IMG/VR virus record: IMGVR_UViG_3300007038_000020 | Coordinates: 1 to 21,616 of that record | DNA length: 21,616 nucleotides | Source: a virus | Strand: one strand, 5' to 3' | Shown: positions 1-21,616 of the stretch, in pieces | How positions within the stretch are numbered: the stretch's first letter is position 1 | How the letters are laid out: every line of letters begins with the position of its first letter | The notes under the pieces: model-generated | The model's input: the letters and a program-made list of their open reading frames with translations, nothing else | What the model was told of the DNA's origin: nothing | Database searches by the model: none | Position numbers and translations under genes: made by a program

Positions 1-230
1 GACGGGTAGTGGACCGCGTTCTTACGAACGGGACCGCGGGTCGAGAACCCGTAGGGGTCCGAGTAGAGGACCTTATCCGCGTCCGGGTTCCCGGTTTCCT
101 TTCGGACCGTCTCGTGGAGATCTCCGAACGCGGACCTGTGGGCGGAACTCGGGGACTGATAGTAGGCGGGCCGGTTCTTGACGACCTTTCGTTCAGCCGG
201 GAGTCCCTGTCCCTGTGCGGTAGCGGACAT
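1..230 (-). CDS. Putative major capsid protein, N-terminal part (runs off the window)
   Basis: An open frame begins at the ATG at 230, which overlaps the TAA of the protease/scaffold gene (TAATG), and stays open for 76 codons to the window edge. The protein begins MSATAQGQGLPAERK and has no domain I can recognise from this fragment. The assignment rests on position: in HK97-type viruses the gene immediately after the prohead protease/scaffold is usually the major capsid protein, and the tight overlap suggests coupled translation. Glu before C is written GAA here too (GCT GAA CGA). It could instead be a decoration protein or another head protein. The open frame is clear; the product is inference. 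Confidence 0.5.
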   Translation of the reverse strand, partial: MSATAQGQGLPAERKVVKNRPAYYQSPSSAHRSAFGDLHETVRKETGNPDADKVLYSDPYGFSTRGPVRKNAVHYP

Positions 231-1882
231 TAGTTCACCCTCCCCGCGGCGGTGATACCCTCCGCGGAGGTCGAGATCTTACCCGAGTCCTTTTCCACGT
301 CGTCGGGACCCGTCCCCGACTTTGAAACTTTCCGTTCCACGTCCTCCTCGTCGTCCTCGTCCTCACCGTCCGCGGACTTTTCGAGGAGTCCAGCCTCCGC
401 GAGGTCCTCGCGGAGGGACTGAATTTCGGACGCGGCGTCCCCGTCCGACTTTTCAGCCTCCCCGTCTGCCTCGTTCCCGTCGGGATCGTTCTCGGGGGAC
501 CCGTCCGCGTCCGCCTCCTCCTCCTCCGTGAGTCCGACCGCTTTCCGCGTCTCGTCCAGATCCTCTCGGAGGGAGTCGAGACGGTCCCCGTGTTCGTTCA
601 CCGACTTAGCGATACTCTCCGTCGTGTCTCGGATCTCTCCGAGAGTGTCTTTCAGTTCGTCGTCCATGTCCGTGTCCGCGTTCGCGTCCGTGTTTTCAGT
701 CTCCTCGTCCTCCGGAGACTCGTTTTTCTCCTGTTCCTCGTCGTCCTCCTCGTCCTCGTCGTCCTCGTCGGACTCCTCCTCTACCTCCTCGTCCTCGTCG
801 GAGTCCTCGGGCGGTCGGATCGGGATAACGACTCCTCCGACCTCCACCTCGTCGTCCATGGCGTCGAGTTCGGCGTCCGCCGCCCACTCGAACATTTCAG
901 CCATGTCCGTATCTGTAACGGTGGAGTTCGGGTTCTCGTCAAAGTAGGCGCGGAGGGCCTCCGCGAGGTTCGCCAAAGCGTCCGCGCCTAGCTGTTTGAG
1001 TAGATCCTGTCTACCGTCTCCCATTTGAAGGGAAACCCGCCTCGTTCCGAGTTCTACCCGGGGCGGGACGGGCTGTGATTCACCCGCCGATTTAGCCGCG
1101 GCGTCCGCGTCCGGGCTGTGTCGGCGGAGGGCGTCTCTTTGCTTTTCCGTGAGGAGGGCGGCGGGGTCGAGGGACGCCGCCCCTCCGTATATCGAGAACC
1201 CTGTGAGGTCCCCGGACTGGACTCGTTTCCACGCGTCCGCCCCGAGTTCCACGCCCATTATCCACGTCCCTTCGGGATATTCGACACTCCCACCGTCGGG
1301 CGTCTCGAACTCCTCGGGACCGTTCCGGATAATGTAGGACTCTATCGGAGTTCCCTCTCCCTCGAAAAGGGAGTGGTCCGCGTCCACTTTCCGATAGTGT
1401 TTCATGTAGTCGTGGGCGGCGGACTCTATCTCGGGTTCGGGGATTAGATCCCCGTGGGCGTCCGCCCGACCCGGGACGAGGACAGCCGCCCATACTTTCC
1501 GTTCGGGCGTCGAGTCCTCCTCGTCGTCCTCGGAGTCCTCGTCCTCGTCCTCGTCCATGTCCTCCTCGTCCTGCTTTCGGAGGAGGAGTTCACGCGTGTC
1601 CCCGAGACGGTTCTGTCCCGGGGTCCAGTTCGCCTCGTCCGCGTCCGCGGATTTAGCTAGTAACCACTCGGAGTCCTGTGCGGGTTCGTCCACGACGGAG
1701 ACATACTCGACCTGTAGTCCCGCGAGGATAGAGTCCGGGTCCGCGTTCTCTATCGCCTCGAACCCGTGTTCCTGTAACCACCCACACAGTTTTTCGGGGT
1801 TATCTACGGAGGGTTCCTGTCCGAGGGTCGAGACACACTCCTCGAACCCTCCCGGAAAAGCCTCGTCAAAGGACTGTGGCAT
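230..1882 (-). CDS. XkdF-like prohead protease fused to acidic coiled-coil scaffold
   Basis: This 550-aa protein probably builds and matures the procapsid. Residues about 128-240 match the XkdF-type serine protease family (Peptidase_S78_2): RKVWAAVLVPGRADAHGD, then DADHS with His170, IESYII, GTWIMGV, and SGDLTGFSIYGG with Ser230. His170 and Ser230 are the likely catalytic pair by analogy with HK97 gp4; the acidic third residue is not assigned. Short Asp/Glu runs occur near residues 105-123, a long one near 355-400, and a heptad-like helix (DELKDTLGEIRDTTESIAK onward) near 410-450. This composition suits a scaffold that is cleaved away during maturation. The acidic tail is long, partly a haloarchaeal trait. 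It sits directly upstream of the putative capsid gene, as expected. No strong ribosome site is visible, only GAGGG about 10 nt before the ATG. Confidence 0.85.
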   Translation of the reverse strand: MPQSFDEAFPGGFEECVSTLGQEPSVDNPEKLCGWLQEHGFEAIENADPDSILAGLQVEYVSVVDEPAQDSEWLLAKSADADEANWTPGQNRLGDTRELLLRKQDEEDMDEDEDEDSEDDEEDSTPERKVWAAVLVPGRADAHGDLIPEPEIESAAHDYMKHYRKVDADHSLFEGEGTPIESYIIRNGPEEFETPDGGSVEYPEGTWIMGVELGADAWKRVQSGDLTGFSIYGGAASLDPAALLTEKQRDALRRHSPDADAAAKSAGESQPVPPRVELGTRRVSLQMGDGRQDLLKQLGADALANLAEALRAYFDENPNSTVTDTDMAEMFEWAADAELDAMDDEVEVGGVVIPIRPPEDSDEDEEVEEESDEDDEDEEDDEEQEKNESPEDEETENTDANADTDMDDELKDTLGEIRDTTESIAKSVNEHGDRLDSLREDLDETRKAVGLTEEEEADADGSPENDPDGNEADGEAEKSDGDAASEIQSLREDLAEAGLLEKSADGEDEDDEEDVERKVSKSGTGPDDVEKDSGKISTSAEGITAAGRVN

Positions 1883-2021
1883 TTACTGGAACCCTCTACC
1901 GTTCCTCGAATATCCGCCATGACTTACGTATAAGGGAGAGTTAGTCCCTATACAGTCCGCTATACACTACAGTCCATTAGCCCCCCGGTATCTTTTTATA
2001 CCGCCCCGTAGTAGATCGGGT
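1883..2021. promoter_or_regulatory. Divergent promoter region between protease/scaffold and the plus-strand gene
   Basis: For the plus-strand gene a TATA box, TCTTTTTATA at 1991-2000, is centred about 26 nt before the ATG at 2022, which predicts a leaderless mRNA. For the minus-strand protease gene a candidate TATA, CTTATACG (about 1937-1928), would give a leader of about 20 nt. Between them lie CTATACAGTCC (1948-1958) and CTATACACTACAGTCC (1960-1975). The second is 15/16 identical to a copy at 12696-12711, so it may be an operator or activator site. TATA spacing follows the archaeal rule; the operator role is inference. Confidence 0.6.
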
Positions 2022-2041
2022 ATGGTTCGAGGAACCACCGA
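2022..2041 (+). repeat. 20-nt repeat at leaderless 5' end, copy 1
   Basis: ATGGTTCGAGGAACCACCGA is the first 20 nt of the plus-strand gene and is identical to the first 20 nt of the minus-strand gene at 21022. It contains GGTTC-GAG-GAACC, a short inverted repeat just after the start codon. The two proteins diverge after MVRGTT. Confidence 0.85.
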
Positions 2042-3140
2042 CGAGTTCGACGCCGCCCGCTACCTGTCCGACGACGCGGACAGCCCCTACTACGTGGACG
2101 CGGAGACGGACGGAGGCGACGACTACCCGCGGACCTACGGGGGCGACTCCGAACACGGGACGGTCGTGGACGCTATCACGGAACTCCAGCCCGGGGACCG
2201 CGTTCTGTGGGGCGACAGGTCCGTCCCCTGTGTCGTCGCCCGCGTCGTGGACAGCCTGAACGACCGGATCGGCTACTCCCTTACCGCCTCCGTCGTCCGA
2301 CCTGTTATCAAAAATGCGTCCGACCGCGAACGGTGGGAGGAGTCGGACCTCCGGGCGGGCGACGTGTTCATGTCCCCCGACCGCTACGGTGGACTCTACC
2401 GCGTCCCGTTCGCTATCGTTCAGGGTCCCCGAGGTGGGTTCTACGCTATCGGAGTCGGGTTCCAGAACGGTCGAAAGCGCCCGATCCTGTTCCGGGCGGT
2501 CCGGACGTTCCACTCCTCGAAACTCGGACAGCCCGGAAAGGGCGCGTGGACGTTCCAGAAGTGGGGACCGGAGACGCTGGAGGTCGTGGAGTCGGGCGAC
2601 GCCCCCGAGGAACTCGACCCCGTCGGGGACCTCCCCTCCTACGAGGAGATCCGGGATAGCCGCCTCGTAACCTACGACAAAGAGGCGGACGAACACTACG
2701 CTGTCGCGGAGACGGTGGAGGAGGCGTTCGACCGCGGACTCCGGACCGCCTACGACGAGGCGGCGTCCGACCGCGAGGCGGAGAAAGTCGAGGAGACGGG
2801 CGAAACGTCCGCGTGGAGGGCGGTCCCCGACCCGGAGGACGTGAACGCCGCCGGGACCCCCTCGGGACACTCCCACTCGGGCGTCTACGTTACGGACCTG
2901 TTCGAGTCCGAATATGGAGACGTGAAAGCGGTCCTCGACGCGCCTGCCCCGTGGGAGACGCCCGACGGTGAGACGCCGTTTAACGAGGCTATCAAGAAAG
3001 CCCCGTGGGAGGACACTCACCGAACCTTTGACTCCGACCGCGAGGCGTGGACCATAGACGCGGAGGAACTCGTCCGCGTCGCCTCACTCCTCGCGGACTT
3101 TGGGTTCTCCACCTACGACGAACGGGCGGACGAGGAGTAG
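2022..3140 (+). CDS. Unknown 372-aa protein, the only confident plus-strand gene
   Basis: I do not recognise this protein as a whole. It is hydrophilic and acidic with no signal peptide or membrane segment. Residues about 58-190 look like a beta-rich domain (LQPGDRVLWGD, LRAGDVFMSPDRYGGLYRV, GGFYAIGVGFQNG). Residues about 210-265 are charged and probably helical. The C-terminal 80 residues (GVYVTDLFESEYGDVKAVLD, then KKAPWEDTHRTFDSDREAW) resemble the short W-containing modules found next to some viral helicases, a weak resemblance only. The ATG at 2022 follows a TATA box by about 26 nt, so the mRNA is probably leaderless. It is transcribed against the surrounding head operon, so it may be separately controlled. 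Its first 20 nt are identical to those of the minus-strand gene at 21022. All seven Glu codons followed by C are GAA, while nearly all the rest are GAG. Confidence 0.85.
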   Translation: MVRGTTDEFDAARYLSDDADSPYYVDAETDGGDDYPRTYGGDSEHGTVVDAITELQPGDRVLWGDRSVPCVVARVVDSLNDRIGYSLTASVVRPVIKNASDRERWEESDLRAGDVFMSPDRYGGLYRVPFAIVQGPRGGFYAIGVGFQNGRKRPILFRAVRTFHSSKLGQPGKGAWTFQKWGPETLEVVESGDAPEELDPVGDLPSYEEIRDSRLVTYDKEADEHYAVAETVEEAFDRGLRTAYDEAASDREAEKVEETGETSAWRAVPDPEDVNAAGTPSGHSHSGVYVTDLFESEYGDVKAVLDAPAPWETPDGETPFNEAIKKAPWEDTHRTFDSDREAWTIDAEELVRVASLLADFGFSTYDERADEE

Positions 3141-3346
3141 AGACAGCCGGTTCACGCGGTCGTGTGGAGAGGTTCTCTTTTGCCGGGGTCGGGGCGACGA
3201 GAGAAAAGCCCGCCGCCCCTCCTATGGAGTTCACCGTCGATCCGGACGCTGTGGGGGGGAAAGAGGAACGTGTGTCCTCTACTGGACGTGGGTCCAGCGT
3301 GTGTCCGGTGGAGAGTCGGCTACTTAGTTCCGTCGTTCGTCTAACA
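3141..3346. terminator. Convergent intergenic region with T-rich tract and hairpin
   Basis: No convincing gene lies here between the convergent stops. A pyrimidine-rich tract, TTCTCTTTTG (about 3175-3184), follows the plus-strand stop and could terminate that transcript, as archaeal termination often uses T-rich tracts. CTGGAC-GTGG-GTCCAG at 3282-3297 is a perfect 6-bp-arm hairpin and could serve as a terminator or processing site on either strand. Confidence 0.4.
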
Positions 3347-3601
3347 CTACCGGAGGCGGTATTTGTCTAACCACTCGTAGAACGTGGGCGGGGAGACGTT
3401 CTCCTCCATTTCGACCTCGTCCAGCCTCGCGTTCAGTTCGCGGAGGGCGGGTCGAACCGCCCCGTGTTTCTCCATGAGACGACGGAGGAGTCCGGGCATA
3501 CTCACCCGGAGGGCGGACTCGACCTCGTCCTCTCGGGAGGTCCGGGCTTTCCGCGACGCCGCCATTTTTGCTATCGCCTCGCGGTAGTCCTCACGACTCA
3601 C
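3347..3601 (-). CDS. Small helical protein with C-terminal HTH-like segment
   Basis: This 84-aa basic/acidic helical protein has a C-terminus, NVSPPTFYEWLDKYRLR, that resembles the recognition-helix end of small helix-turn-helix proteins. I chose the GTG at 3601 (MSREDYREAIAKM) because GGAGGTGG lies about 7 nt upstream. The GTG at 3610 falls inside that ribosome site. It overlaps the preceding membrane-protein gene by 11 nt, so translation is probably coupled. It could bind DNA or be a small head-completion or regulatory protein; the sequence does not decide. Confidence 0.65.
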   Translation of the reverse strand: MSREDYREAIAKMAASRKARTSREDEVESALRVSMPGLLRRLMEKHGAVRPALRELNARLDEVEMEENVSPPTFYEWLDKYRLR

Positions 3602-3905
3602 GGGACCCACCTCCGCCGCCGCGGATCTCTCGAACGTCCCGGAGTATGTCCGTCCCGATAGAGTAGCCGATCCCGGATAACCATGAGAGGACGAGGACCG
3701 AACTCGTCGCGGTCCCCGGGCTGGAGATCTCCCCCGCGAGAGAGAGGAACACGACCGCCGGATAGTAGAGGACGAGAAAGACAGCTACGAGAGTCGAGAG
3801 GGCTTTCCATCTATACCGTGGAGTGTTCGTCCCGTAGCCGATCTCCCACCGTCCAGCGTCGCCTCCGCCCGCCTCGTCGGACGCTGTCGCGTCGCCCGTG
3901 GACAC
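3591..3905 (-). CDS. Small membrane protein with two predicted membrane helices
   Basis: The 104-aa protein has an acidic N-terminus (about 30 residues), then two hydrophobic segments: LSTLVAVFLVLYYPAVVFL (about 36-55) and SSVLVLSWLSGIGYSIG (about 68-84). It ends in a charged, glycine-rich tail (IRGGGGGSRES). The GTG start lies 4 nt after the TAG of the upstream gene, with GCGGAG as a possible ribosome site. Two-helix membrane proteins in viral head operons include holin-like lysis proteins, but nothing specific supports that here. It may instead be a host-membrane accessory protein. Confidence 0.65.
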   Translation of the reverse strand: MSTGDATASDEAGGGDAGRWEIGYGTNTPRYRWKALSTLVAVFLVLYYPAVVFLSLAGEISSPGTATSSVLVLSWLSGIGYSIGTDILRDVREIRGGGGGSRES

Positions 3906-3909
3906 GGTC

Positions 3910-4203
3910 CTACTCCGCGCCTCCAGCCGAGATAAGAACGTCTGTCGTCCCGCCGGACCCGGCTGTGTTCACCGACACGCGGACGAACCGTTCGGTGAGG
4001 GTGAGTTTCAGGTCCGTGTCTCCGGACAGTCCCGTGTTCTCGTCTAACCATGAACCCTCACGGTCCGAGACAGTTACGTCGAACGTCTCTCCGTTCCCCG
4101 GCGGGCGGATCCGTATGTTACAGGAGTCGTCCCCGGGCTTTTCGAGGACGAGTTCCGCGGAACCGTCGGTCGAGTCCAAAGCCTCGTCTCGGATCTCGTG
4201 CAT
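3910..4203 (-). CDS. Small beta-rich protein, possibly virion-associated
   Basis: This 97-aa acidic protein is predicted to be mostly beta strands (AELVLEKP, CNIRIRPPG, TFDVTVSDREGSWL, LKLTLTERFVRVSVNT, TDVLISAG), like many small decoration or head proteins. I prefer the ATG at 4203 over the in-frame GTG at 4212 because the TATA box GAACTTTAAG is centred about 26 nt before 4203, giving a leaderless mRNA. It lies between the 471-aa structural gene and the membrane-protein gene. A virion role is inferred from fold type and position. Confidence 0.6.
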   Translation of the reverse strand: MHEIRDEALDSTDGSAELVLEKPGDDSCNIRIRPPGNGETFDVTVSDREGSWLDENTGLSGDTDLKLTLTERFVRVSVNTAGSGGTTDVLISAGGAE

Positions 4204-4220
4204 ACTCGACACTCCGACCG

Positions 4221-4235
4221 TCGTTTCTTAAAGTT
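4221..4235 (-). promoter_or_regulatory. TATA box for the 4203-3347 minus-strand genes
   Basis: On the minus strand, GAACTTTAAGAAACG contains a TATA-like core, CTTTAAG, centred about 26 nt upstream of the ATG at 4203. The spacing fits a leaderless transcript covering the three small genes downstream. Confidence 0.5.
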
Positions 4236-4251
4236 CGCCTACGGAGGCGGA

Positions 4252-8226: not shown

Positions 8227-8889
8227 CTACTCCGTCTCGGGAGGCGTCGAGGCGGGTTCAGTCTCGACCTCACAGGAACAGTAACCGAATAGGTGAGAGG
8301 CGGCTACCTCCAGCCGCATACTCATAGCGGTAGCGACAGCGTGGACGCCGACGTTCGCGTGTCCAGCGTAGACCTCGCGGAGACGGTTACACTCTCGCGG
8401 TTCCACGTCGTCTCGGAACACACTCCGCGGGTGGTTCTCGTGACTACAGCGTCCGAATATGTGTCTCGTGATAGTGTTCTCCGAACGGTAGAACTCGTCC
8501 GCTATCTCCGCGACGGAGTAGCCCGCGGTAAATCGTTCCCTGAATATCCGACACTCCGTAACGCGGATCGTCGGAGAGGCGGTCGGGGGGACCTCGTGTT
8601 CGTGAGAACAGTCTCCATAGGCGTGTCTCATTATCTCGGAGGTCGTCCTCGCGGGATAGTTCTCCATTACCTCGCGGACTGTCTCCGCCTCGGACATAGC
8701 CTCGCGGATCCGCCGACAGGTCGAGGCGGGCGTCCCCGTCCGCGTCCCCGTCTCCGCCGCCCCGTCGGGCAGGAGGTCGTTCGGGTTCCGGTCCTCGGGG
8801 GCTTTCGAGGCGAACGCCTCTATCCGGTCGTAGTCGTCCTCCGTGAGGTTCCCCCGCCGCCCGGGAGAGTCCCCGGACATGGAACTCAT
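8227..8889 (-). CDS. Protein with three Cys-His-Cys-His helix-turn-helix repeats
   Basis: The 220-aa protein has three tandem repeats of about 40-55 residues. Each starts with a Cys followed by an Arg-rich helix (CRRIREA, CRIFRER, CNRLREV), continues through a segment reading like a helix-turn-helix (for example AGYSVAEIADEFYRSENTITRH), and ends H-x4-C-x-[HC]. The putative metal ligands are C58/H89/C94/H96, C113/H143/C148/H150 and C167/H199/C204/C206. The constant spacing suggests each repeat is a zinc-stabilised DNA-binding unit. The ATG at 8889 overlaps the upstream TGA (ATGA). Sitting just before portal, it could be a transcription regulator or a DNA-recognition part of the packaging machine. 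Repeats and spacing are seen; zinc and DNA binding are inferred. Confidence 0.75.
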   Translation of the reverse strand: MSSMSGDSPGRRGNLTEDDYDRIEAFASKAPEDRNPNDLLPDGAAETGTRTGTPASTCRRIREAMSEAETVREVMENYPARTTSEIMRHAYGDCSHEHEVPPTASPTIRVTECRIFRERFTAGYSVAEIADEFYRSENTITRHIFGRCSHENHPRSVFRDDVEPRECNRLREVYAGHANVGVHAVATAMSMRLEVAASHLFGYCSCEVETEPASTPPETE

Positions 8890-13183: not shown

Positions 13184-14677
13184 TTAGGCTTTCTCGACGG
13201 AGGAACTCCCACCCGAGGCGTCGCCTCCGGAGGGTCCCTCGTCGTAACCCATGACAGCATATCTCATAGCGTCGAGGGCGTGGTCCTCCGCCCGTTTCGT
13301 CCCTACGTCTTTCGACTTATAGGACTGTATTTCGGAGATTAACTGTTCACAGCGGTCCGAGATTATCAGCCCCACGCGCCCGGTCGAGTCCGTCCCGAGG
13401 CGACGCCGGACCGCGGGGATCCCGGCGTTCAGGGACTTATTCGCGGGGACCGCCTGAAAGCCCGCTTTTCGGAATTTCGTTATGTCCTCGGGTTCGTGTT
13501 CCGAGTGGATCACTCCCGTCGGTTTAGCCTCGTTCCCGAGGTTCCCCTTCAACCATGAGATAGCGTCCTCGACGTGTGACTCCTCGCGGTAATACTCGTC
13601 CAGAACGAGTAGCTGTCCGTAGGGGTTCGTCGTGAGTTCCACGACGACGCGAGGATCCGTCCACCCGGCGTCGTAACCGTAGAACCTGAACTCTTCGTCC
13701 GCGAGAACGTCCGCCTCCGCCGCGGGGAGGACATGGTCGTTCCTATTGAATTTCGAGTAGACGAGATCCCTAGCCGCCGCATACCCGCCATAGAGTCCCT
13801 GTTCCTCTAGGTGAGTCCCCTCGTATTGTCTCCGGAGTTTCCGCTTAGTCGAGGGGGCGATAAACGGGTTCAGGAGGACGTTCAGTTCTACGACGTGGAT
13901 ATTCGAGGACAGCGGTTCCTCGTCCTCGTCCACGCGCCTCTCCATTATCTCGTAGGCGGCGTTCCCGCCCATACCGTTCCCCGTATAGGTCCATAGCTGG
14001 ACCGCGGGCGGACCCGTCGAGAGACGACTCCCTATCATACGCCGAATTTGGTGGAGGTCGTCTCCGTAGAGAGACGGTTCGTCTAACCACGCCGCGTGGA
14101 ACTCGTCTCCAGCGTGTCGCCCGGGGTCGTCCGCGGACCCGAGGACGACCTGTGATCCGTTCCGGTAGGTGAGGATATTGTCCCGTCGAGAGTAGTCCTC
14201 GATTATCGGACTCGTCTCCGGACCGTTATGGTTCGCGGTGAGGACGTGAGTCATTTCCCCCGGGAGGTTCTGGAACAGAACCTTATACGTCGTCTTTTTC
14301 GCTTTCGCAAAGTCCTGTCCCATACACAGGAGACGGACGCCCGGTCGTTCGAGGGCTAAGTTATGAATAAACCTCGCGCCCGTCGTGGACTTTCCAGAAC
14401 GGTAGCCGCCTAACGCCCCGACTATGTCCCACCCGTCCGCGGGGACCTCCACGTCGATATACTCTCCCGTGAGTCGGTAGTAGAGGCGGTTCAGCCCGTT
14501 CCGGCGGACGAGAGGCTGATTAAGGTGGTAGAGAACTCGGACCTGTTCACTCCAGAACTTGTATTCTAACGCGGGGTCCGCGGTCGGGTCGTAGGCGAGT
14601 CCATCTACCTCACCCTCGGGTTCGACGCCGCCGACAGCCGGTCCCTCCGGATCGTTCGGAGAGGCTACGGTAGACAT
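13184..14677 (-). CDS. terL: Terminase large subunit (packaging ATPase and nuclease)
   Basis: TerL powers DNA packaging into the procapsid through the portal and cuts the concatemer. The 497-aa length suits the family. The N-terminal ATPase has a Walker A motif, GGYRSGKSTTG (about 90-100), and a Walker B, DEFHAAWLDEP, with D199/E200. The preceding GSADDPGRHAGDE is typical. The C-terminal RNase H-like nuclease has YGYDAGWTDP (D336), LVLDEYY (D360) and EDHALDAMRYAVMG (D465/D469), which are likely metal ligands. I use the ATG at 14677 (MSTVASPNDPEGP), since upstream sequence is the shadow of the zinc-ribbon gene and GATAAAC (14704-14710) supplies a TATA-like box 30 nt before it. Unusually, about 5 kb of accessory genes separate it from portal. 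Confidence 0.95.
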   Translation of the reverse strand: MSTVASPNDPEGPAVGGVEPEGEVDGLAYDPTADPALEYKFWSEQVRVLYHLNQPLVRRNGLNRLYYRLTGEYIDVEVPADGWDIVGALGGYRSGKSTTGARFIHNLALERPGVRLLCMGQDFAKAKKTTYKVLFQNLPGEMTHVLTANHNGPETSPIIEDYSRRDNILTYRNGSQVVLGSADDPGRHAGDEFHAAWLDEPSLYGDDLHQIRRMIGSRLSTGPPAVQLWTYTGNGMGGNAAYEIMERRVDEDEEPLSSNIHVVELNVLLNPFIAPSTKRKLRRQYEGTHLEEQGLYGGYAAARDLVYSKFNRNDHVLPAAEADVLADEEFRFYGYDAGWTDPRVVVELTTNPYGQLLVLDEYYREESHVEDAISWLKGNLGNEAKPTGVIHSEHEPEDITKFRKAGFQAVPANKSLNAGIPAVRRRLGTDSTGRVGLIISDRCEQLISEIQSYKSKDVGTKRAEDHALDAMRYAVMGYDEGPSGGDASGGSSSVEKA

Positions 14678-14705
14678 GGTCGAGTTCTGTATAGCGACAT
14701 ATGGT

Positions 14706-15032
14706 TTATCGTTCGTTCCATGTGAACTCCTCGGACCCCGGTCCGCGGTCCGTCCCGTCCAGCGGATCTCCACAGCGGGGACAGTCCCCGCCCGCCTCCT
14801 CGCGTTCCTCCTCCGTGAACTGGACGAGTTCGACCCCACAGGTCCCACACAGGAGACGACTCTCACAGGAACCGCATATCTCCGGGTCGTCTCCGCCCGG
14901 TCGGACTCGGATATGTCCTCGACAGTCCGGACAGGTTACGATCCGCGCCTCTGTCTCACCCGTCCGCTGTCGTTTCCGACGAGTGAGGTTCCTCTCCCGG
15001 GCGTCCGACCGATCCCGGCGTCTCGGACTCAT
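14706..15032 (-). CDS. Double zinc-ribbon protein (108 aa)
   Basis: A basic N-terminus (MSPRRRDRSDARERNLTRRKR) is followed by four CxxC pairs: C34/C37, C53/C56, C62/C65 and C84/C87. These could form two zinc sites. The sequence CPDCRGHIRV...ICGSCESRLLCGTCG resembles archaeal zinc-ribbon nucleic-acid binders. The tail is acidic. The ATG at 15032 overlaps the upstream TGA (ATGA). It immediately precedes terL, so a packaging-linked DNA-binding role is possible but not shown. Confidence 0.75.
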   Translation of the reverse strand: MSPRRRDRSDARERNLTRRKRQRTGETEARIVTCPDCRGHIRVRPGGDDPEICGSCESRLLCGTCGVELVQFTEEEREEAGGDCPRCGDPLDGTDRGPGSEEFTWNER

Positions 15033-15625: not shown

Positions 15626-15626
15626 A

Positions 15627-16059: not shown

Positions 16060-16075
16060 GACAGATAATAATTTG
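16060..16075 (-). promoter_or_regulatory. TATA box for the 16040 to terL unit
   Basis: The minus strand reads GCAAATTATTATCTGT, an AT-rich island in otherwise GC-rich DNA, centred about 28 nt before the ATG at 16040. This fits an archaeal TATA box for a leaderless transcript. Confidence 0.55.
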
Positions 16076-16085
16076 CGTCCTCTCA

Positions 16086-16235
16086 CTATCCGCCGACAGC
16101 CGTGTCCCGTCCGACGGAGTTCGTGTCCCCCACCAGTAGTTTCCCACACTCCGAACAGGCATAGCACTTACTGGAGAGTTCTCCACAGACGGGACAGGGT
16201 CCGTAGCGGGGAGTCCGGATCGGGTCGAACGCCAT
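16086..16235 (-). CDS. 49-aa zinc-ribbon miniprotein
   Basis: The frame runs from ATG at 16235 to TAG at 16086, two nt after the upstream TAG. The protein (MAFDPIRTPRYGPCPVCGEL onward) has C14/C17, C24/C27 and C30. The sequence CPVCGELSSKCYACSECG is a rubredoxin-like or zinc-ribbon knuckle. It is probably a metal-binding scaffold for nucleic-acid or protein contact. It ends the operon that begins near 19675, before the TATA box at 16060. Confidence 0.7.
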   Translation of the reverse strand: MAFDPIRTPRYGPCPVCGELSSKCYACSECGKLLVGDTNSVGRDTAVGG

Positions 16236-16237
16236 AG

Positions 16238-16531
16238 CTAGTGGACCTCTACGTGTCCGTTTCCCGGACGGGGAGGAAAGCGGACGCCTACCACCTCGTC
16301 CAGCGTGTCGTTATCCACCTCCTCCGCCCCGGAGACGTGGAGGAACAGTCCGCGGTCCTCGTGAGTGATCCCGTCCACGTCGTAGCCCTCCTCTCGGAGT
16401 CGGTTCCGGACCTCCTCTACGAGTCGCCCGACGTTCGCGTTTATCCCCGAGAACCACACGCCGCCCTCCTCGACGGTGAACACGCGGGACCGCTGGACCT
16501 CCTCTACGATCTCCGCTATCTCCCGAGTCAT
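16238..16531 (-). CDS. Unknown 97-aa alpha/beta protein
   Basis: I use the ATG at 16531, an ATGA overlap with the upstream gene. The pattern helix (TREIAEIVEEVQRSR), strand (GGVWFSGINANV), helix (RLVEEVRNRLREEGYDVDG), strand (RGLFLHVSG), helix suggests a compact fold. No Cys and no known family. Confidence 0.65.
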   Translation of the reverse strand: MTREIAEIVEEVQRSRVFTVEEGGVWFSGINANVGRLVEEVRNRLREEGYDVDGITHEDRGLFLHVSGAEEVDNDTLDEVVGVRFPPRPGNGHVEVH

Positions 16532-16947
16532 GGTTCCGCCCCACTCTCGACCTCGTTCATAACGCCCCGGACGACGAGGAGGGCGTTCACGTACCACTCC
16601 ACGTCCCCGGACCGGAGTTTCTCGCGGATCTCCTCCGTCCCCTCCCCCGAGACGATCCCATGGAAAAACGTCGTAATACGGGCTAGTTCCCGCGTGTCGT
16701 CGGTTACAGTTACGTCCTCCCATGTGAGTGTCTCCGACTGTCGGACAGCCTCGGGATAGTCCTCTCGGAGGTCCTCCATGTCCTCCTCGTAGGCCCGGAG
16801 AACCTCGACCTCGTCCCGCGTCTGTTCACGGAGGAACTCCAGCCGACTCTCGTCTACGTCGTCCTCGTAGGTCGTCCCGAACACGGTATCATACCGGGCG
16901 TTCGGGCGGACAGCCGCCTCCTCTCGCGTGTCCATAAGTTGTGTCAT
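16528..16947 (-). CDS. Unknown acidic helical protein (139 aa)
   Basis: The protein is mostly helix (ESRLEFLREQTRDEVEVLRA, EDMEDLREDYPEAVRQ, RELARITTFFHGIVSGEGTEE, VEWYVNALLVVRGVMNEVE) and resembles many small viral proteins of unknown role. It starts 2 nt after the upstream TAA. The second half may form a four-helix bundle. Function unknown. Confidence 0.65.
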   Translation of the reverse strand: MTQLMDTREEAAVRPNARYDTVFGTTYEDDVDESRLEFLREQTRDEVEVLRAYEEDMEDLREDYPEAVRQSETLTWEDVTVTDDTRELARITTFFHGIVSGEGTEEIREKLRSGDVEWYVNALLVVRGVMNEVESGAEP

Positions 16948-16949
16948 GG

Positions 16950-17384
16950 TTACTGTCTCGAAAGTCTTTCCGCCGCGTCTGTCCCACCTCCACAGGCGGG
17001 ACAGCCCGGACGGTTTCCCGCCCCGTCGCCCCGGAACTCTCCTATCGGGACGACCGCCTCACAGTCCGGACACTCCACAGCGTCGCCCTCCAGAACCTCC
17101 CGCGGCGGGTCGAGGAACTCGACTCTCGTCCGACCGTCGTGTCCGTGGACCTCGTCTACGTCGTGTTCTCCACCCGGGTAGACGTAGACGGAGTCCTCGT
17201 TCGTGTCGGGTCCCTCCTCGCGGCTATCGTTCACCCACGAGAGGACCGCTGTCCCGGCGGGGAACACGACTCCGACCGCGACGACGCCCGTCCCGGAGAC
17301 GCCCGTCTCGTCCTCCTCGCGGACGAGGCGGAACCGTCTCGGGTCCAGCCCGGACGCCGCGTCCGTGTCGTCGGTCGGAGTCAT
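16950..17384 (-). CDS. Barrel-like protein with HGHDG motif and zinc ribbon (144 aa)
   Basis: Residues about 29-92 (VSGTGVVAVGVVFPAGTAVL, SWVNDSREE, SVYVY, DEVHGHDGRTRVEFLD) match a small beta domain I have seen in many phage proteins of unknown role, with the HGHxGxTxVxWLD end. It is followed by a zinc ribbon, ECPDCEAVVP...GCPACGG (C105, C108, C128, C131). The ATG at 17384 overlaps the upstream TGA (ATGA). The combination suggests a nucleic-acid-binding accessory protein; this is inference. Confidence 0.7.
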   Translation of the reverse strand: MTPTDDTDAASGLDPRRFRLVREEDETGVSGTGVVAVGVVFPAGTAVLSWVNDSREEGPDTNEDSVYVYPGGEHDVDEVHGHDGRTRVEFLDPPREVLEGDAVECPDCEAVVPIGEFRGDGAGNRPGCPACGGGTDAAERLSRQ

Positions 17385-17560
17385 AGGTTCCACTCGTCTA
17401 ACCACTCTTTCACCTCACTATCAGATAAATCCCGCCCCTGATAGCCCCGGTTTATCTCCTCCAGTTCAGCCCGGTCGGACTCCCGGACCGCGCCCGGGTA
17501 TAAATACTGTCTTGTGACATTAGTCCTCGACCGTCTCCTCCGGGACGAGTCCGGTTCCAT
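17381..17560 (-). CDS. Small helical protein, start uncertain
   Basis: The C-terminal part (GAVRESDRAELEEINRGYQG, then RDLSDSEVKEWLDEWNL) looks genuine, ending in an ATGA overlap with the next gene. The start is unclear. The in-frame ATG at 17560 lies 41 nt inside the upstream gene and gives a poor Arg/Ser-rich N-terminus (MEPDSSRRRRSRTN). A well-placed ATG at 17520 (TAATG overlap) is in another frame and yields only 22 codons. The two frames could be joined by a -1 shift. Possibly the start is elsewhere or one base is missing in the sequence. Confidence 0.5.
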   Translation of the reverse strand: MEPDSSRRRRSRTNVTRQYLYPGAVRESDRAELEEINRGYQGRDLSDSEVKEWLDEWNL

Positions 17561-17669
17561 CACAGACGGGACAGGGTCCGTTATGGACGATCCCACCCAC
17601 CTCCGACAGACGGATCGTGTCGCCCTCACACTTTGGACAGGCGACGAGGACCGGGCGTCTGTCTCTCAT
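17520..17669 (-). CDS. 49-aa zinc-ribbon miniprotein (DnaJ-type)
   Basis: The sequence ACPKCEGDTIRLSEVGG (C11, C14) and GPCPVCDGTGLVP (C33, C36) forms a complete four-Cys knuckle of the CxxCxGxG type. The ATG at 17669 overlaps the upstream TGA (ATGA). It ends TAA at 17520. It is the same class as the genes at 10342-10563 and 16086-16235. Such minis typically stabilise nucleic-acid or protein contacts; the role here is unknown. Confidence 0.7.
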   Translation of the reverse strand: MRDRRPVLVACPKCEGDTIRLSEVGGIVHNGPCPVCDGTGLVPEETVED

Positions 17670-17905
17670 GGCGGGAACTCTCCCTCTCCGTAGCCGACTC
17701 CGTCCGTGTCCTCCGAGGAGAGGGGCTGGAGGTCTATCCCCGAGGTGAACCCGTCGTCCGGACGCTTTCGGAGGGCGTCCTCGACGCGGACCTCCAGTTC
17801 CTCCTCGGAGATCTCTCCGGAGAAATACGCCTCGTATGCCTCGTCCAGATCCTCCCTCCACTCCGGGCGGTCCGGGATCGGGTCCGGGTTATGGTTCGGA
17901 GTCAC
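17666..17905 (-). CDS. Small acidic helical protein, GTG start (79 aa)
   Basis: The start is GTG at 17905, making a GTGA overlap with the upstream gene; the longer upstream open frame is shadow. The protein has a central helical segment (RPEWREDLDEAYEAYFSGEI, then SEEELEVRVEDALRK) and an acidic tail (SSEDTDGVGYGEGEFPP). The helical part resembles SHOCT-type or short dimerising helices. Function unknown. Confidence 0.65.
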   Translation of the reverse strand: MTPNHNPDPIPDRPEWREDLDEAYEAYFSGEISEEELEVRVEDALRKRPDDGFTSGIDLQPLSSEDTDGVGYGEGEFPP

Positions 17906-18099
17906 TCGTAAACGTCCCCCTCGTAGCCGGGGTTCTCTACCTCCTCGTCCTCCCCGTCCATACGTGTGATAGTAACCTCGTTCGCCCCGTTCACGAGGGC
18001 GTGAGTCGCGGCGTGGGACGCGTCGTAGAGTGGGATAGCCTCCATACCGTCCCAATAGAGGCGTTCTCCATCTACTTCTACATAGTAGAGGTCGTTCAC
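17902..18099 (-). CDS. Small beta-rich protein, GTG start (65 aa)
   Basis: The sequence MNDLYYVEVDGERLYWDGME, then NEVTITRMDGEDEEVENPG is strongly beta in character. The GTG at 18099 overlaps the upstream TGA (GTGA), suggesting translational coupling. No Cys and no membrane segment. Function unknown. Confidence 0.6.
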   Translation of the reverse strand: MNDLYYVEVDGERLYWDGMEAIPLYDASHAATHALVNGANEVTITRMDGEDEEVENPGYEGDVYE

Positions 18100-18653
18100 G
18101 AGTCCACCTCCGGGACCGCCTCCAGTTCAGCCGCCGCCTCGGAGTCCTCGGGGATCCGGTCCCTCTCGGGTAGCCCCTCCGGGTTCGCGCCCTCCATGTC
18201 CGCCTCCACGCCTGATATGGCGACGGTGATAGGCTGTCCGTCGCCCCCGGAGAACAGGTCGTCCACGTCGTCCTCTAGGTCGAGAACGCCGAGTTTCTCC
18301 AGCGTCCCGACCCACCGACTCACGAACGAGTGATAGTCGAACGGGTCGTAGTCCTCGTCCGCCTGAATTTCAAGTAGCCCCTGTTCAAACAGGGAGACAG
18401 CTACTCCGGAAACTCGACTTACGTTCAGTTCCTCGACTAACCACTCCGTGAGAGTCGTCTTATCGTTATGGAGAGTGGATTTACTCTTACTGTAGTAGCG
18501 GGACAGACGACTCCAGTTCACCGCGTCCGGGTGTCCTTTGTCGAGGATATAGTTCTGGAGTATGTCCGCCCGTCTCTCCTGATAGGAGTAGTCCTCGGGG
18601 GCTTTGTCCGTCGGGAGAGAGAGGTTCCGGTAGTCTACGTCCATGTCGCCCAT
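18096..18653 (-). CDS. HTH protein, candidate terminase small subunit (185 aa)
   Basis: Residues about 22-75 contain SYQERRADILQNYILDKGHP and WSRLSRYYSKSKSTLHNDKTT, which reads like a helix-turn-helix with a following helix (LTEWLVEELN). The C-terminal half is acidic (PEDSEAAAELEAVPEVDS). TerS proteins combine an N-terminal HTH with an oligomerising helix and an acidic tail, and recognise packaging sites. It sits in the operon upstream of terL, and the nearest long non-coding DNA (19.7-20.1 kb) is the natural place for a pac site. It could equally be a transcription regulator. Start ATG at 18653 is 3 nt after the upstream TAA; a second ATG is at 18644. Confidence 0.5.
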   Translation of the reverse strand: MGDMDVDYRNLSLPTDKAPEDYSYQERRADILQNYILDKGHPDAVNWSRLSRYYSKSKSTLHNDKTTLTEWLVEELNVSRVSGVAVSLFEQGLLEIQADEDYDPFDYHSFVSRWVGTLEKLGVLDLEDDVDDLFSGGDGQPITVAISGVEADMEGANPEGLPERDRIPEDSEAAAELEAVPEVDS

Positions 18654-18656
18654 GGG

Positions 18657-18902
18657 TTAGATCCCTCCGGAGGGGTTCACGTTGAGGTATAGTTCAGCCC
18701 CGTCCTCCAGCGGAGAGGCGGCTACGGTAGTATAGAGGTCGAGAGGAGTTCCCTCGTAAACGAGATCGTAGTCCTGTGAGAACCACCCGACCTCGTCTCT
18801 CGCTAGGATCTCCCCGAGGACCGCCCCTATGTGGTGGTTCGGTCCGAACGCGACGGAGTGAGTGGTTCGAGGCGTTTGGACGGTGAACGAGTAGCGTTCC
18901 AT
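18657..18902 (-). CDS. Ubiquitin-fold (beta-grasp) protein ending in Gly-Gly-Ile
   Basis: This 81-aa protein reads strand-strand-helix-strand-strand like ubiquitin: ERYSFTVQTP, THSVAFGPNHHI, GAVLGEILARDEVG, YDLVYEGTPLD, then LEDGAELYLNVNPSGGI. The central part matches the ubiquitin pattern in which a hydrophobic strand, a turn with Gly, and a final strand precede a C-terminal diglycine. Gly79-Gly80 is followed by one extra residue (Ile81), so a conjugating form would need trimming; it may instead be a non-conjugated Ubl. The ATG at 18902 is 2 nt after the upstream TGA. No E1, E2 or JAB-like gene is visible in the window. Fold assignment is inferred from pattern. Confidence 0.65.
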   Translation of the reverse strand: MERYSFTVQTPRTTHSVAFGPNHHIGAVLGEILARDEVGWFSQDYDLVYEGTPLDLYTTVAASPLEDGAELYLNVNPSGGI

Positions 18903-18904
18903 AC

Positions 18905-19675
18905 TCACTCCCCGTGTTCCTCCGCGAACCTCTCGCGGACCGCCTCCAGTTCCTCCTCGGAGTGGTCGTCCCACTCGTCCAGCCCGGGGAGGACCTCGTT
19001 CAGTCCGTCGTCCGGGACGTGTAACGTCCCGCCTCCATAGCCCTCCACGTCCTCCGCGGGGACGAGAGAGACATGGGAGAGTTCCAGCCCCTCCAGTATG
19101 CCCGCGCCCTCCTCCTCGTCCACCTCTCCGGGCGGGTCGGGGAGGAGTTCCCGTTCGAGGTGGTTAGCCGCGTCCCGGTAGGCGTTAGCCGCCCCTACGT
19201 TCACGTCGTCTCCCTCTCCCTCGAACGCGTGTCTCTCGTTCGCCTCCGAGAGAGTCCTGAACGTCTCGATACACTCCGCGACTCGGGTTAGGAGTGGGCG
19301 GTCCTGTCGGTCCGCCTCGCGGGTCCGTGGATCCCTCGGACCGACGAACGCAAACCCTCGACTCCACAGCGTCTCCTCCCGAGTCCGCCCGGATCGTTTC
19401 CGGACGACCTCGTGTTTCAGGTAGCCGGACTCCTCCGCGAACCGGATCCTCTCACGGTGGAACACGGTCGTCTCCTCGTCGTCGTCGTTCGCCTGATAGA
19501 CGCTGTCCAGCGTGTGAAATGCCCGGACCTGATAGCCCCCTGTGGACCACTCCGTCGTCTCGATAGTGAACTCCCCCGAGAGTCGTTTCTCCGCGGCGTC
19601 GCGGACGAGATCTCGGACCGCGTCGAGAGGGTAGTATCCACCCGTCGCGTTCGTTCGGGACTTTTCGTCCTCCAT
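18905..19675 (-). CDS. Unknown 256-aa protein upstream of the ubiquitin-like gene
   Basis: No family recognised. The N-terminal half (YYPLDAVRDLVRDAAEKRL, GEFTIETTEWSTGGYQVRAF, ETTVFHRERIRFAEESGYL, EETLWSRGFAFVGP) suggests an alpha/beta domain with exposed basic residues. The C-terminal half has helices (LTRVAECIETFRTLSEANER, NAYRDAANHLERELLPDP) and an acidic tail (EELEAVRERFAEEHGE). It lies 2 nt before the ubiquitin-like gene and heads an operon. It lacks visible E1, E2 or deubiquitinase motifs. A functional link to the Ubl is possible but unproven. Confidence 0.65.
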   Translation of the reverse strand: MEDEKSRTNATGGYYPLDAVRDLVRDAAEKRLSGEFTIETTEWSTGGYQVRAFHTLDSVYQANDDDEETTVFHRERIRFAEESGYLKHEVVRKRSGRTREETLWSRGFAFVGPRDPRTREADRQDRPLLTRVAECIETFRTLSEANERHAFEGEGDDVNVGAANAYRDAANHLERELLPDPPGEVDEEEGAGILEGLELSHVSLVPAEDVEGYGGGTLHVPDDGLNEVLPGLDEWDDHSEEELEAVRERFAEEHGE

Positions 19676-19699
19676 GAGTGAGGAGTAGGGGTTCAGTCT

Positions 19700-19720
19700 C
19701 TCATAAAGCTACGGTAAGAC
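19700..19720 (-). promoter_or_regulatory. TATA box for the 19675-16086 operon
   Basis: The minus strand reads ACCGTAGCTTTATGAGAGAC, with TATA core CTTTATG centred about 33 nt before the ATG at 19675, giving a short leader. Upstream GTTAGTCTTACCGTAGCTTT resembles GTTAGCCTACCCGTAACTTT before the 21022 gene, so the two promoters may share an upstream element. Confidence 0.55.
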
Positions 19721-19887
19721 TAACGGGTTCTGTGTCGCGTTCTGGAGACGAGAGTAGAGTCTCTCGACTCGGGGGACGAACGTTCGACGGGTAACGGGCG
19801 TCGTTCGGGGGGACTGTTCGGGGGGTCGTTCGAGGGCGTCGAGGAGGAGTGGAGAGGTGGACCTCCGGGTAGGGGATTTTATCGAGT

Positions 19888-19903
19888 GAGGAACCACCGA
19901 ACC
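19888..19903 (+). repeat. Relic copy of the leaderless-5'-end repeat
   Basis: GAGGAACCACCGAACC matches 16 nt of the start of the gene at 21022 (and most of 2022). There is no ATG, and in the matching frame a TGA precedes the shared block and a TAG follows it, so it looks like a degenerate or non-coding copy just downstream of a TATA-like ATTTTATC. Confidence 0.6.
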
Positions 19904-20016
19904 CGGGGAGTAGCCCGAGTTCGGGTCCGATCTCCCTGAACGCACACTCCGCGGTATGCCCGCGTCGTCGTTATGGTTCGACGTTCGGCGTTTCGAGACG
20001 GTCCTCCACAGCCTGT

Positions 20017-20044
20017 GTCCCACAGCGTCGTTCTCGTGTGGGAC
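20017..20044. other. Perfect 8-bp inverted repeat (stem-loop)
   Basis: GTCCCACA and TGTGGGAC flank a 12-nt loop. The stem lies about 30 nt downstream of the minus-strand TAGCTTTTTC element, so a transcript from it would begin just before the hairpin. It may act as a terminator, an RNA structure or a protein site. Confidence 0.55.
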
Positions 20045-20107
20045 GGACTAACAGACGGAGGTGGTAATGAAAAAGCTACTGGACGCTACGGTGGTTCCGG
20101 TCGTGGA

Positions 20108-20446
20108 CTACCGCGTGACCTGAACGACGCCGCGGAGGTCCTCGTCTATCTCCCACCACATAGCCTCGGAGACGACGGGCGGGACGTGGGAGATCTCGAA
20201 CTCGTGAGTCGCCTCGTAGCCCTCGTTCGTCTCCTCGACCGCCTGTAGTGCGTAGAGGGTCCACGCGTCGTAGCGGTCGAACGTCTCCGTGTCCAGCGGG
20301 TTCTCGGGTCGGAGTCGGGCGCGGACGGGCTGTCGGGACTGTCCGATCTCGTAGACTACGTCCACGCCGTCTATCCCGTCGGGGCGGAGTCCAGCGTGGA
20401 CGAGTTCCGCGGAGTCCGCGGCGTCCTCGGAGTGTCGAGAGGACAT
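20108..20446 (-). CDS. Unknown 112-aa protein
   Basis: I use the ATG at 20446 (TAATG overlap). The protein has an alpha/beta pattern (DGVDVVYEIGQSRQPVRAR, YDAWTLYALQAVEETNEGYE, THEFEISHVPPVVSEAMWWE, GVVQVTR). No Cys and no membrane segment. It ends the operon from 21022; the family is unknown. Confidence 0.65.
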   Translation of the reverse strand: MSSRHSEDAADSAELVHAGLRPDGIDGVDVVYEIGQSRQPVRARLRPENPLDTETFDRYDAWTLYALQAVEETNEGYEATHEFEISHVPPVVSEAMWWEIDEDLRGVVQVTR

Positions 20447-20640
20447 TAGGACGTGTCCTCCTCGTCCGCGTCCATGAGTTCGCGGAGTTCCTGAACGCGG
20501 TCCTCGGAGAGGTCCTCCTCCGTGAGGATCCCGTCTTTTACTCCCTGTGCTATCATTTCGAGGTTCCGGCGGGCGTGACTGTCCACGTCTCGCGTCTCTC
20601 CGTCGCGGAGTTTCGCGGGCGTGGGGGTCCACGAGGACAT
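20446..20640 (-). CDS. Unknown small helical protein (64 aa)
   Basis: I use the ATG at 20640 (TAATG overlap). Helices are NLEMIAQGVKDGI and SEDRVQELRELMDADEEDTS. The charged N-terminus (SSWTPTPAKLRDGETRDVDS) may be flexible. Function unknown. Confidence 0.6.
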   Translation of the reverse strand: MSSWTPTPAKLRDGETRDVDSHARRNLEMIAQGVKDGILTEEDLSEDRVQELRELMDADEEDTS

Positions 20641-20882
20641 TACGCCTCCACCTCCTGTCGGCGGTCCACGAGGGCGACTTTCCAGCGGGAGACGACCTCC
20701 TCGTCCTCGTCCGTGTCGAGGGGCTGGACGGTCCACTCCACGTCGTCCACCCACGCGGTCCGGTCGAACTCTCGGAGGACCGTTCGTTTCGCCATACACC
20801 GCGTGTCGTAGGGGTTCGTCGTCTCCACGACCGCGATAGCCGCGTTCTCTCTCTCGACCTCGTAGCGGGCGACGTAGGGCAT
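20640..20882 (-). CDS. Unknown small beta-rich protein (80 aa)
   Basis: Strands include PYVARYEVERENAAIAVVET, AKRTVLREFDRTAWVDDVEW and VVSRWKVALVDRR, giving a compact beta sheet. The ATG at 20882 overlaps the upstream TAA (TAATG). No known family. Confidence 0.6.
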   Translation of the reverse strand: MPYVARYEVERENAAIAVVETTNPYDTRCMAKRTVLREFDRTAWVDDVEWTVQPLDTDEDEEVVSRWKVALVDRRQEVEA

Positions 20883-21022
20883 TACTCCGCGCCCTCCTCG
20901 TCCGTCTCGTCCTCGTCGTTCAGGAGGACCCGCTGGAGTCCAGTAGCCGGGACGCCGCGGGCGTAGACGCGTTCGGTCGTGTCGTCCGGTTCGTCCGTCG
21001 GTTCGGTGGTTCCTCGAACCAT
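20882..21022 (-). CDS. 46-aa acidic peptide with leaderless start shared with the 2022 gene
   Basis: The frame runs ATG 21022 to TAA 20882 (MVRGTTEPTDEPDDTTERVY onward, ending DEDETDEEGAE). TTTATATT is centred about 25 nt upstream, so transcription should begin at the ATG. The first 20 nt and MVRGTT are identical to the gene at 2022, but the rest differs. The protein is almost entirely disordered and acidic, which may mean the 5' end matters more than the product. Confidence 0.6.
   Translation of the reverse strand: MVRGTTEPTDEPDDTTERVYARGVPATGLQRVLLNDEDETDEEGAE
21003..21022 (-). repeat. 20-nt repeat at leaderless 5' end, copy 2
   Basis: The first 20 nt of the 46-aa gene are identical to the first 20 nt of the plus-strand gene at 2022, about 19 kb away and in opposite orientation. 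The match stops right after the shared codons. Confidence 0.85.
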
Positions 21023-21040
21023 GGGATCCGATTAGCGGGA

Positions 21041-21053
21041 CTCAATATAAAGT
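21041..21053 (-). promoter_or_regulatory. TATA box for the 21022-20108 operon
   Basis: The minus strand reads ACTTTATATTGAG, with core TTTATATT centred about 25 nt before the ATG at 21022, the classical archaeal TATA-to-start distance, so the mRNA is probably leaderless. The preceding GTTAGCCTACCCGTA resembles the element before the 19675 promoter. Confidence 0.65.
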
Positions 21054-21094
21054 TACGGGTAGGCTAACAGCGGGTAGCGTAGAAAGTCGAGGGG

Positions 21095-21616
21095 TTACGA
21101 GTCGGACTCGTCGCCCCACACAGTCCACCCGTCGCGTGGGCGGCGGGCGAACAGGTCGAGGTAGTCGGGTGGACTCGTCGCCTCTACGAGGCGGTAGAAT
21201 TTCTCGGGCTTTGTGGAGTGGTCCGTTCTCTCCGCGAAAAAGTGAGTCCGAACGTCGTTCCTAGCTGTGGAACGGTTCCCCTTTGTGGCAAAGAGGACGT
21301 GTTCGGTCGTGTTCCGGAGGTAGTGTCCCATACCTAAGCGGTCCTCCACCTCGACGCCTCCAGCCCGTTCGTGAGGGAGGTCCTCGGGTTCGTTCTGGAC
21401 TTTCACCCACGTTAGGACGGTCTTTCGGTCGAACCCCCACGCCTCCACGACCTCGAACGCCTCGCGGAGAAACGAGTTCGTCGTCCACAGCCACAAATGG
21501 GCGGACGAGGTGGTAGCCGCCCGGACCTGTGGACCCATACCCGCGACGGTCCCGCTGTGGAGAACGTCGTAGTGGGAGTTCGCCCCTCGACCCGGTCCGG
21601 GGAGGTCGTCGTCGTA
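21095..21616 (-). CDS. MT-A70-type adenine DNA methyltransferase, C-terminal part
   Basis: The frame is open to the right edge and gives 173 residues starting YDDDLPGPGRGANSHYDVL, which normally follows the catalytic DPPW motif; that motif would lie just outside. HLWLWTTNSFLREAFEVVEA, KTVLTWVKVQ, LRNTTEHVLFATKGN and HSTKPEKFYRLVEATSP are typical of the MT-A70 / DNA N6-adenine methyltransferase fold (PF05063), ending RRPRDGWTVWGDE. The enzyme would transfer a methyl group from S-adenosylmethionine to adenine in a target DNA, protecting viral DNA from host restriction or marking it. Site specificity cannot be read from this part. The stop is TAA at 21095. Confidence 0.85.
   Translation of the reverse strand, partial: YDDDLPGPGRGANSHYDVLHSGTVAGMGPQVRAATTSSAHLWLWTTNSFLREAFEVVEAWGFDRKTVLTWVKVQNEPEDLPHERAGGVEVEDRLGMGHYLRNTTEHVLFATKGNRSTARNDVRTHFFAERTDHSTKPEKFYRLVEATSPPDYLDLFARRPRDGWTVWGDESDS

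What the first reader, a model, noticed from the sequence alone, without database searches (positions are those of the whole stretch)
1..21616. GAGC and GCTC are absent from the whole window
Reading every AGC and GCT in the sequence I found none preceded by G (GAGC) or followed by C (GCTC). At this base composition each would be expected on the order of a hundred times. CAGC, TAGC and AAGC are common, so this is not a general lack of AGC. The cause is visible in the codons: in the plus-strand gene at 2022 all seven Glu codons before C are GAA, while nearly all other Glu codons are GAG. The same holds in the 46-aa peptide at 21022 and the fragment at 230. Such complete loss suggests selection against a host restriction, BREX-like or other target containing GAGC.
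Basis: seen in the sequence. Interest (0 to 1): 0.85.

Follow-up and report, generated by a model that had tools for sequence, protein, structure and literature searches.

The report
Halovirus genome purged of GAGC sites
This piece of a salt-loving archaeon's virus contains not one copy of the four-letter DNA word GAGC, and almost none of about a dozen other short words; it and its closest relatives appear to have removed, letter by letter, the target sites of their hosts' DNA-cutting defences, which points to a GAGC-reading defence not yet described in these archaea.

Summary
In detail: 0 GAGC/GCTC in 21,616 bp, against 195 (Markov), 206±10 (synonymous-codon shuffle, coding part only) or about 306 (density in 63 other haloviral loci). 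Every reading phase compensates: 120/120 Glu codons before C are GAA, 574/609 elsewhere are GAG; Leu CTC is 0/70 after G, 289/405 otherwise. So the selection acts on DNA, not on codons.

The window is a fragment of an undescribed tailed-halovirus clade (terminase 63-79% identical to the window's, against 41-45% for Humcor1, HSTV-1 and BJ1). GAGC is absent from three further members (38.4, 16.6 and 5.7 kb), nearly absent from two and partly depleted in one. In 195 non-clade loci (2.6 Mb) the lowest observed/expected is 0.56; haloarchaeal genome stretches are 0.82-0.98.

GAGC is not alone: GGCC, GTAC, GAAG, GATG, GTTG, GCAG, CCWGG and 17 of 24 testable palindromic hexamers are also purged. Other motifs switch by lineage: CTAG, GATC, AGCT, CATG, CTGGAG.

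Best reading: extreme restriction-site avoidance against many host DNA-recognising defences, one reading GAGC. Host and enzyme are unidentified. The only modification of exactly GAGC/GCTC found in the literature held is bacterial phosphorothioation. New variant of a known kind.

The parts
1..21616 (.). Whole window: no GAGC on either strand; strong depletion of GGCC (5), GTAC (4), GTTG (4), GCAG (5), GAAG (9), GATG (12), GCAC (10), TGCA (1), CCWGG (0) and most palindromic hexamers
230..1882 (-). Head maturation protease (Peptidase_S78_2)
   Evidence: Pfam PF14550 1e-24, phrog_33677 1.4e-67
2022..3140 (+). 372-aa protein of unknown function, the only long plus-strand gene called; all 7 Glu codons before C are GAA
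   Evidence: no Pfam hit; gene calls; codons
5667..8174 (-). Portal protein with C-terminal Mu-F-like domain; 53-78% identical in clade members
   Evidence: PF04860 2.5e-18, PF04233 below its cut-off; alignment A6
8227..8889 (-). Helix-turn-helix protein, weak match
   Evidence: PF13936 4.5e-4, below curated cut-off
13184..14677 (-). Terminase large subunit; likely start at the ATG that is residue 64 of the longer open frame (13184-14866)
   Evidence: invariant M64 in alignment A1
21095..21616 (-). MT-A70 type DNA adenine methyltransferase, cut by the window edge; not found in the other clade records
   Evidence: PF05063 1.6e-19, PADLOC MTase_II 4.3e-38, clade search

Best explanation
The window is part of a tailed virus of haloarchaea whose lineage has lost its GAGC/GCTC sites by point mutation, largely synonymous, because unprotected DNA carrying them is attacked by a sequence-specific host defence (restriction-modification or phosphorothioate type) that reads the non-palindromic tetramer GAGC. 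The same lineage has purged many other host-defence target words, with a set that differs between its members and so reflects which hosts or defences each has met. Shown: the absence, its DNA-level nature, its restriction to this clade among the loci examined, its independence from GATC, AGCT, CTAG and CATG avoidance. Inferred: that the agent is a host defence, and that it acts on DNA like a restriction system. Not known: host and enzyme.
For: 0 observed vs 195-306 expected and z -21 in codon shuffles. All codon phases compensate: Glu GAA before C 120/120, Leu CTC after G 0/70, Gly/Arg GGA/CGA before Ala never. Depletion on both strands. Exactly GAGC: neighbours GAGA 452, GAGG 654, GAGT 370, CAGC 135, TAGC 150 are abundant. 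Clade-wide: 0 in 38.4 kb (G005), 0 in 16.6 kb (G004), 0 in 5.7 kb (L226), 15 in 39.3 kb (G001), about 20 in 23 kb (G006), 132 in 33.5 kb (G003). Not in 195 other loci, lowest o/e 0.56; HF1-group PolB-matched stretches 0.81-0.98; not in 22 haloarchaeal genome stretches, 0.82-0.98. The co-purged words include sites methylated or predicted in haloarchaea: CTAG, GATC, CATTC, TTCGAA, CTCGAG, GGCGCC, CTGGAG (papers; counts). Motifs switch independently by lineage, as expected for different defence repertoires. Precedent: HF1-group and SH1-like haloviruses lack GATC and CTAG.
Against: No host was identified and no GAGC-recognising enzyme was found. Passages read from haloarchaeal RM surveys do not list GAGC. 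Non-palindromic 4-base targets are unusual for Type II restriction (own knowledge). Some purged units look like trinucleotides (GCA 10-fold, CAA 5-fold), broader than known restriction targets. The window encodes one methyltransferase, so it does not rely on avoidance alone.
Confidence: 0.82

Rival explanations
1. The GAGC-reading defence is specifically a DNA phosphorothioation system (Dnd, or BREX type 4) modifying G*AGC/G*CTC. This is a narrower form of the best explanation.
For: G*AGC/G*CTC is a mapped phosphorothioate motif in gut Lachnospiraceae, confirmed in work on BREX type 4 (the title of that work is). G*ATC is the motif of the haloarchaeal DndCDEA-PbeABCD system (PMC6459918), and GATC is also totally absent in G004 and G005. 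DndC occurs in 3 of 145 Halobacteria genomes.
Against: DndC is rare in Halobacteria; DUF4007 of BREX type 4 was found in 0/145, though without a positive control. Known phosphorothioate systems modify only a fraction of their sites. GAAC/GTTC, another such motif, is enriched 2.3-fold here.
Confidence: 0.2
2. Host-like nucleotide or codon composition: the host genome itself lacks GAGC.
For: The clade's codon usage differs from other haloviruses (GGA, TCC, ATA, AAA raised). The true host is not known.
Against: Synonymous shuffle with the window's own codon usage expects 206; all sampled haloarchaeal stretches have GAGC at 0.82-0.98 of expectation and there are thousands of CGAGCG per genome.
Confidence: 0.05
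3. The virus encodes its own site-specific nuclease that destroys host DNA at GAGC and other words, and lacks the sites for self-protection.
For: Would explain extreme and simultaneous loss of many words in one clade only.
Against: No shared nuclease gene was seen in Pfam scans of the called proteins of G001, G003-G006 and the window; only an Hjc resolvase in G005. Motif sets differ between members.
Confidence: 0.04
4. A mutational process (context-dependent mutation or repair) erases these words without selection.
For: Trinucleotides GCA and CAA are broadly depleted.
Against: Loss is exact to GAGC with GAGA/GAGG/GAGT abundant, is total in four records, goes with loss of many 6-base palindromes, and neighbouring members differ in which words are lost. 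GAGC is present at extra places in one of two near-identical genomes.
Confidence: 0.04

Closest known systems
Palindrome avoidance in HF1-group haloviruses (HF1, HF2, Hardycor2, Serpecor1; PMC7230728)
   Same: Complete loss of short restriction-like words (GATC, CTAG) and many 6-base palindromes in haloarchaeal tailed viruses, read there as defence evasion
   Different: HF1-group stretches have normal GAGC (0.81-0.98 over the PolB relatives, HF2 0.94); non-palindromic words were not focused upon there; the clade here purges non-palindromes too, on a large scale
GATC/CTAG loss in SH1, PH1, HHIV-2 (PMC3622292)
   Same: Total absence of a tetramer in a virus whose host genome has it in plenty
   Different: Palindromic words known as haloarchaeal targets; a different virus type
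Phosphorothioate motif G*AGC/G*CTC (gut Lachnospiraceae, BREX type 4; PMC11931770)
   Same: Exactly the same non-palindromic tetramer pair
   Different: Bacterial; no such system demonstrated in haloarchaea or linked to this virus
DndCDEA-PbeABCD of haloarchaea (PMC6459918)
   Same: Haloarchaeal sequence-specific antiviral defence reading a tetramer (GATC)
   Different: Motif GATC, which the window keeps (119 sites)

Membership tests
Restriction-site avoidance in viruses | Motif count far below expectation after controlling for composition and protein sequence | tested here: met
   0 vs 206±10, z -21
Restriction-site avoidance in viruses | Avoidance acts on both strands and all codon phases | tested here: met
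Restriction-site avoidance in viruses | Host genome not equally depleted | tested here: inconclusive
   Met for 22 sampled haloarchaeal stretches, but the true host is unknown
Restriction-site avoidance in viruses | A host enzyme recognises the motif | not testable with these tools
   Host unidentified; no GAGC enzyme in the papers searched
HF1-group type avoidance | GATC and CTAG absent | tested here: not met
   Window has GATC 119 and CTAG 15; met in relative G004 and, but for one CTAG, in G005
Phosphorothioate-defence (Dnd or BREX type 4) avoidance | Purged motif equals a known PT motif | tested here: met
   GAGC/GCTC equals G*AGC/G*CTC
Phosphorothioate-defence (Dnd or BREX type 4) avoidance | PT genes present in the host | tested here: inconclusive
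   DndC 3/145 Halobacteria, DUF4007 0/145 without positive control; host unknown
Haloarchaeal tailed viruses (Caudoviricetes) | Terminase, portal and head protease related to known haloviruses | tested here: met
   TerL 41-45% identical to five known haloviruses, portal and protease

The most novel reading that the evidence does not exclude
Haloarchaea carry an undescribed, strong antiviral system that reads the non-palindromic tetramer GAGC/GCTC (possibly a phosphorothioation system of archaeal type), and this virus clade has answered by complete elimination of the word together with dozens of other defence targets, so that each genome is a readable record of the defences of its hosts.
Probability: 0.4. 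Interest if true: 0.75.

Novelty: new variant of a known kind. Interest (0 to 1): 0.6.

Why it matters
Loss of restriction sites by viruses is known, but total loss of a frequent non-palindromic tetramer, together with most palindromic hexamers and several pentamers, across a whole virus clade goes well beyond the halovirus examples found here. It predicts a GAGC-reading defence in haloarchaea that the papers searched do not list, and it gives a list of further words (CCWGG, CACTG, CTCAG, CAGAG, GAAG, GATG and others) as candidate specificities to test. Lineage-specific switches (CTGGAG, CTAG, CATG, GATC) could be used to match viruses to hosts.

Tried and rejected
DNA search for near relatives among phage records: none. 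First genome-contig scan with the terminase: none; the second, with an alignment, gave terminases only 40-45% identical; 391 Halobacteria genomes gave 48-57% at best, and those stretches have normal GAGC. So no host assignment. Degenerate motifs that would contain GAGC (GWGC, GAGM, GAGY, RGCY, GDGCHC) were checked; none unifies the pattern. In G003, where GAGC is only partly depleted, GGAGCC and GGAGCG occur at baseline density and other contexts are low, so no crisp longer motif emerged. A PAPS-reductase-domain protein in G003 was considered as a DndC-like PT enzyme; matches are CysH-like or a weak SspD hit (22.5 bits), so it is not claimed. A shared viral nuclease was looked for and not found. 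The key paper on BREX type 4 phosphorothioation is not held.

Full report
Observation. The window has no GAGC and no GCTC. A trinucleotide Markov model expects 194.5, shuffling synonymous codons in the called genes expects 206±10 with a minimum of 180 in 200 shuffles, and the mean density in 63 other haloviral or proviral loci of similar GC (874 kb, 14.18 per kb, minimum 4.74) gives about 306. These are three different reading phases, and depletion is seen on both strands, so the pressure is on DNA.

What the window is. It is a whole 21,616-bp virus record. It encodes a head protease, a portal with a Mu-F-like end, a terminase large subunit, a helix-turn-helix protein and, at the right edge, an MT-A70 DNA adenine methyltransferase. 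The terminase is 41-45% identical to those of Humcor1, HSTV-1, DL1, HRTV-28 and BJ1, and 63-79% to a set of metagenomic viruses. This clade has no named member in the records searched.

GAGC is not alone. Against other haloviruses GTTG, GCAG, GGCC, TGCA, GAAG, GATG, GTAC and GCAC are 14-40 fold rarer in the window. CCWGG, CACTG, CTCAG and CCCAG are absent. Of 24 palindromic hexamers expected at least 5 times, 17 are absent; in Humcor1, BJ1, DL1 and five other non-clade virus loci 0-2 are, in HSTV-1 7 of 38, in HRTV-28 4 of 29, and in host stretches 0-4. Of non-palindromic hexamers expected at least 5 times, 16% are absent, against 0-1.3% in comparators. CCCGGG and GGWCC are enriched 2-6 fold across the clade, so the effect is word-specific.

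The clade. GAGC counts: window 0; G005 0 in 38.4 kb; G004 0 in 16.6 kb; L226 0 in 5.7 kb; G001 15 in 39.3 kb; G006 about 20 in 23 kb; G003 132 in 33.5 kb. Other words switch independently: GATC and AGCT are absent in G004 and G005 but GATC is present 119 times in the window; CATG is absent only in G001; CTAG is near zero in all but the window (15, of which 14 are in GCTAGN or its complement); CTGGAG is 47 in the window and 0-2 in the others. Hence GAGC avoidance does not follow from avoidance of GATC, AGCT, CTAG or CATG. Outside the clade, 195 loci totalling 2.6 Mb have a lowest o/e of 0.56, and HF1-group stretches are at 0.81-0.98. Twenty-two haloarchaeal genome stretches are at 0.82-0.98.

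Ongoing change. L002 and L003, from two samples, differ at 26 positions in 16 kb. Four loci carry GAGC (together with AGCT) in L002 and not in L003; two others carry GCAG or GCAC in L002 only; none goes the other way. At the one GAGC difference where the window aligns clearly (L002 17490) it has the GAGC-free state GAGGTC, so the word was probably gained in L002. About 4.6% of random substitutions would make the word, so four in 25 is somewhat more than neutral (p 0.03). This may be relaxed selection in the L002 population; numbers are small.

Mechanism. The simplest account is purifying selection by host defences that read these words in unprotected DNA. Several purged words are methylated or predicted targets in haloarchaea: CTAG, GATC, CATTC, CTGGAG (not purged in the window), TTCGAA, CTCGAG, GGCGCC (PMC7230728, PMC10609329, PMC6471742; counts). 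For GAGC itself the papers searched give no restriction enzyme or methylation motif; the only exact match is phosphorothioation at G*AGC/G*CTC in gut bacteria (PMC11931770). Haloarchaeal phosphorothioation is known at GATC (PMC6459918), and DndC is present in 3 of 145 Halobacteria genomes, so a PT system is possible but not shown. The host is unknown, which is the main gap.

Verdict. Observation confirmed; interpretation partly supported. The phenomenon is of a known kind, site avoidance, but a new variant by its extent and by the non-palindromic word.

Noticed in passing
window 21095-21616 (-): MT-A70 adenine methyltransferase, found in no other clade record; the window is also the only member that tolerates CTGGAG (47) and CTAG (15). 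A causal link is a guess.
   Followed up: partly
L002 vs L003, 16 kb shared: 26 SNPs; 6 loci carry purged words in L002 only (GAGCTC or CAGCTC at four), none in L003 only; looks like a population with relaxed or changed selection.
   Followed up: partly
L093 and L094 (G005), L019 (G004): GATC and AGCT are totally absent and CTAG is 0-1, along with no GAGC, in 38.4 and 16.6 kb.
   Followed up: yes
L091:5440-6483 (G003): 347-aa protein with a PAPS reductase domain (8.4e-19) in the clade member with the weakest GAGC avoidance; CysH-like or weakly SspD-like, function unknown.
   Followed up: partly
L091:2400-4067 (G003): 555-aa protein matching PADLOC mad8 (5.8e-15) and HerA helicase models, in a virus record.
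   Followed up: no
window 1-21616: GCA/TGC trinucleotide about 10-fold and CAA/TTG 5-fold rarer than in other haloviruses, broader than any single tetramer.
   Followed up: partly
window and clade contigs: CCCGGG is 4-6 fold and GGWCC 2-3 fold enriched in all clade members relative to other haloviruses.
   Followed up: no
L119, a 20-kb haloarchaeal genome stretch: GATC is almost absent in host DNA (2 observed, 79 expected).
   Followed up: no
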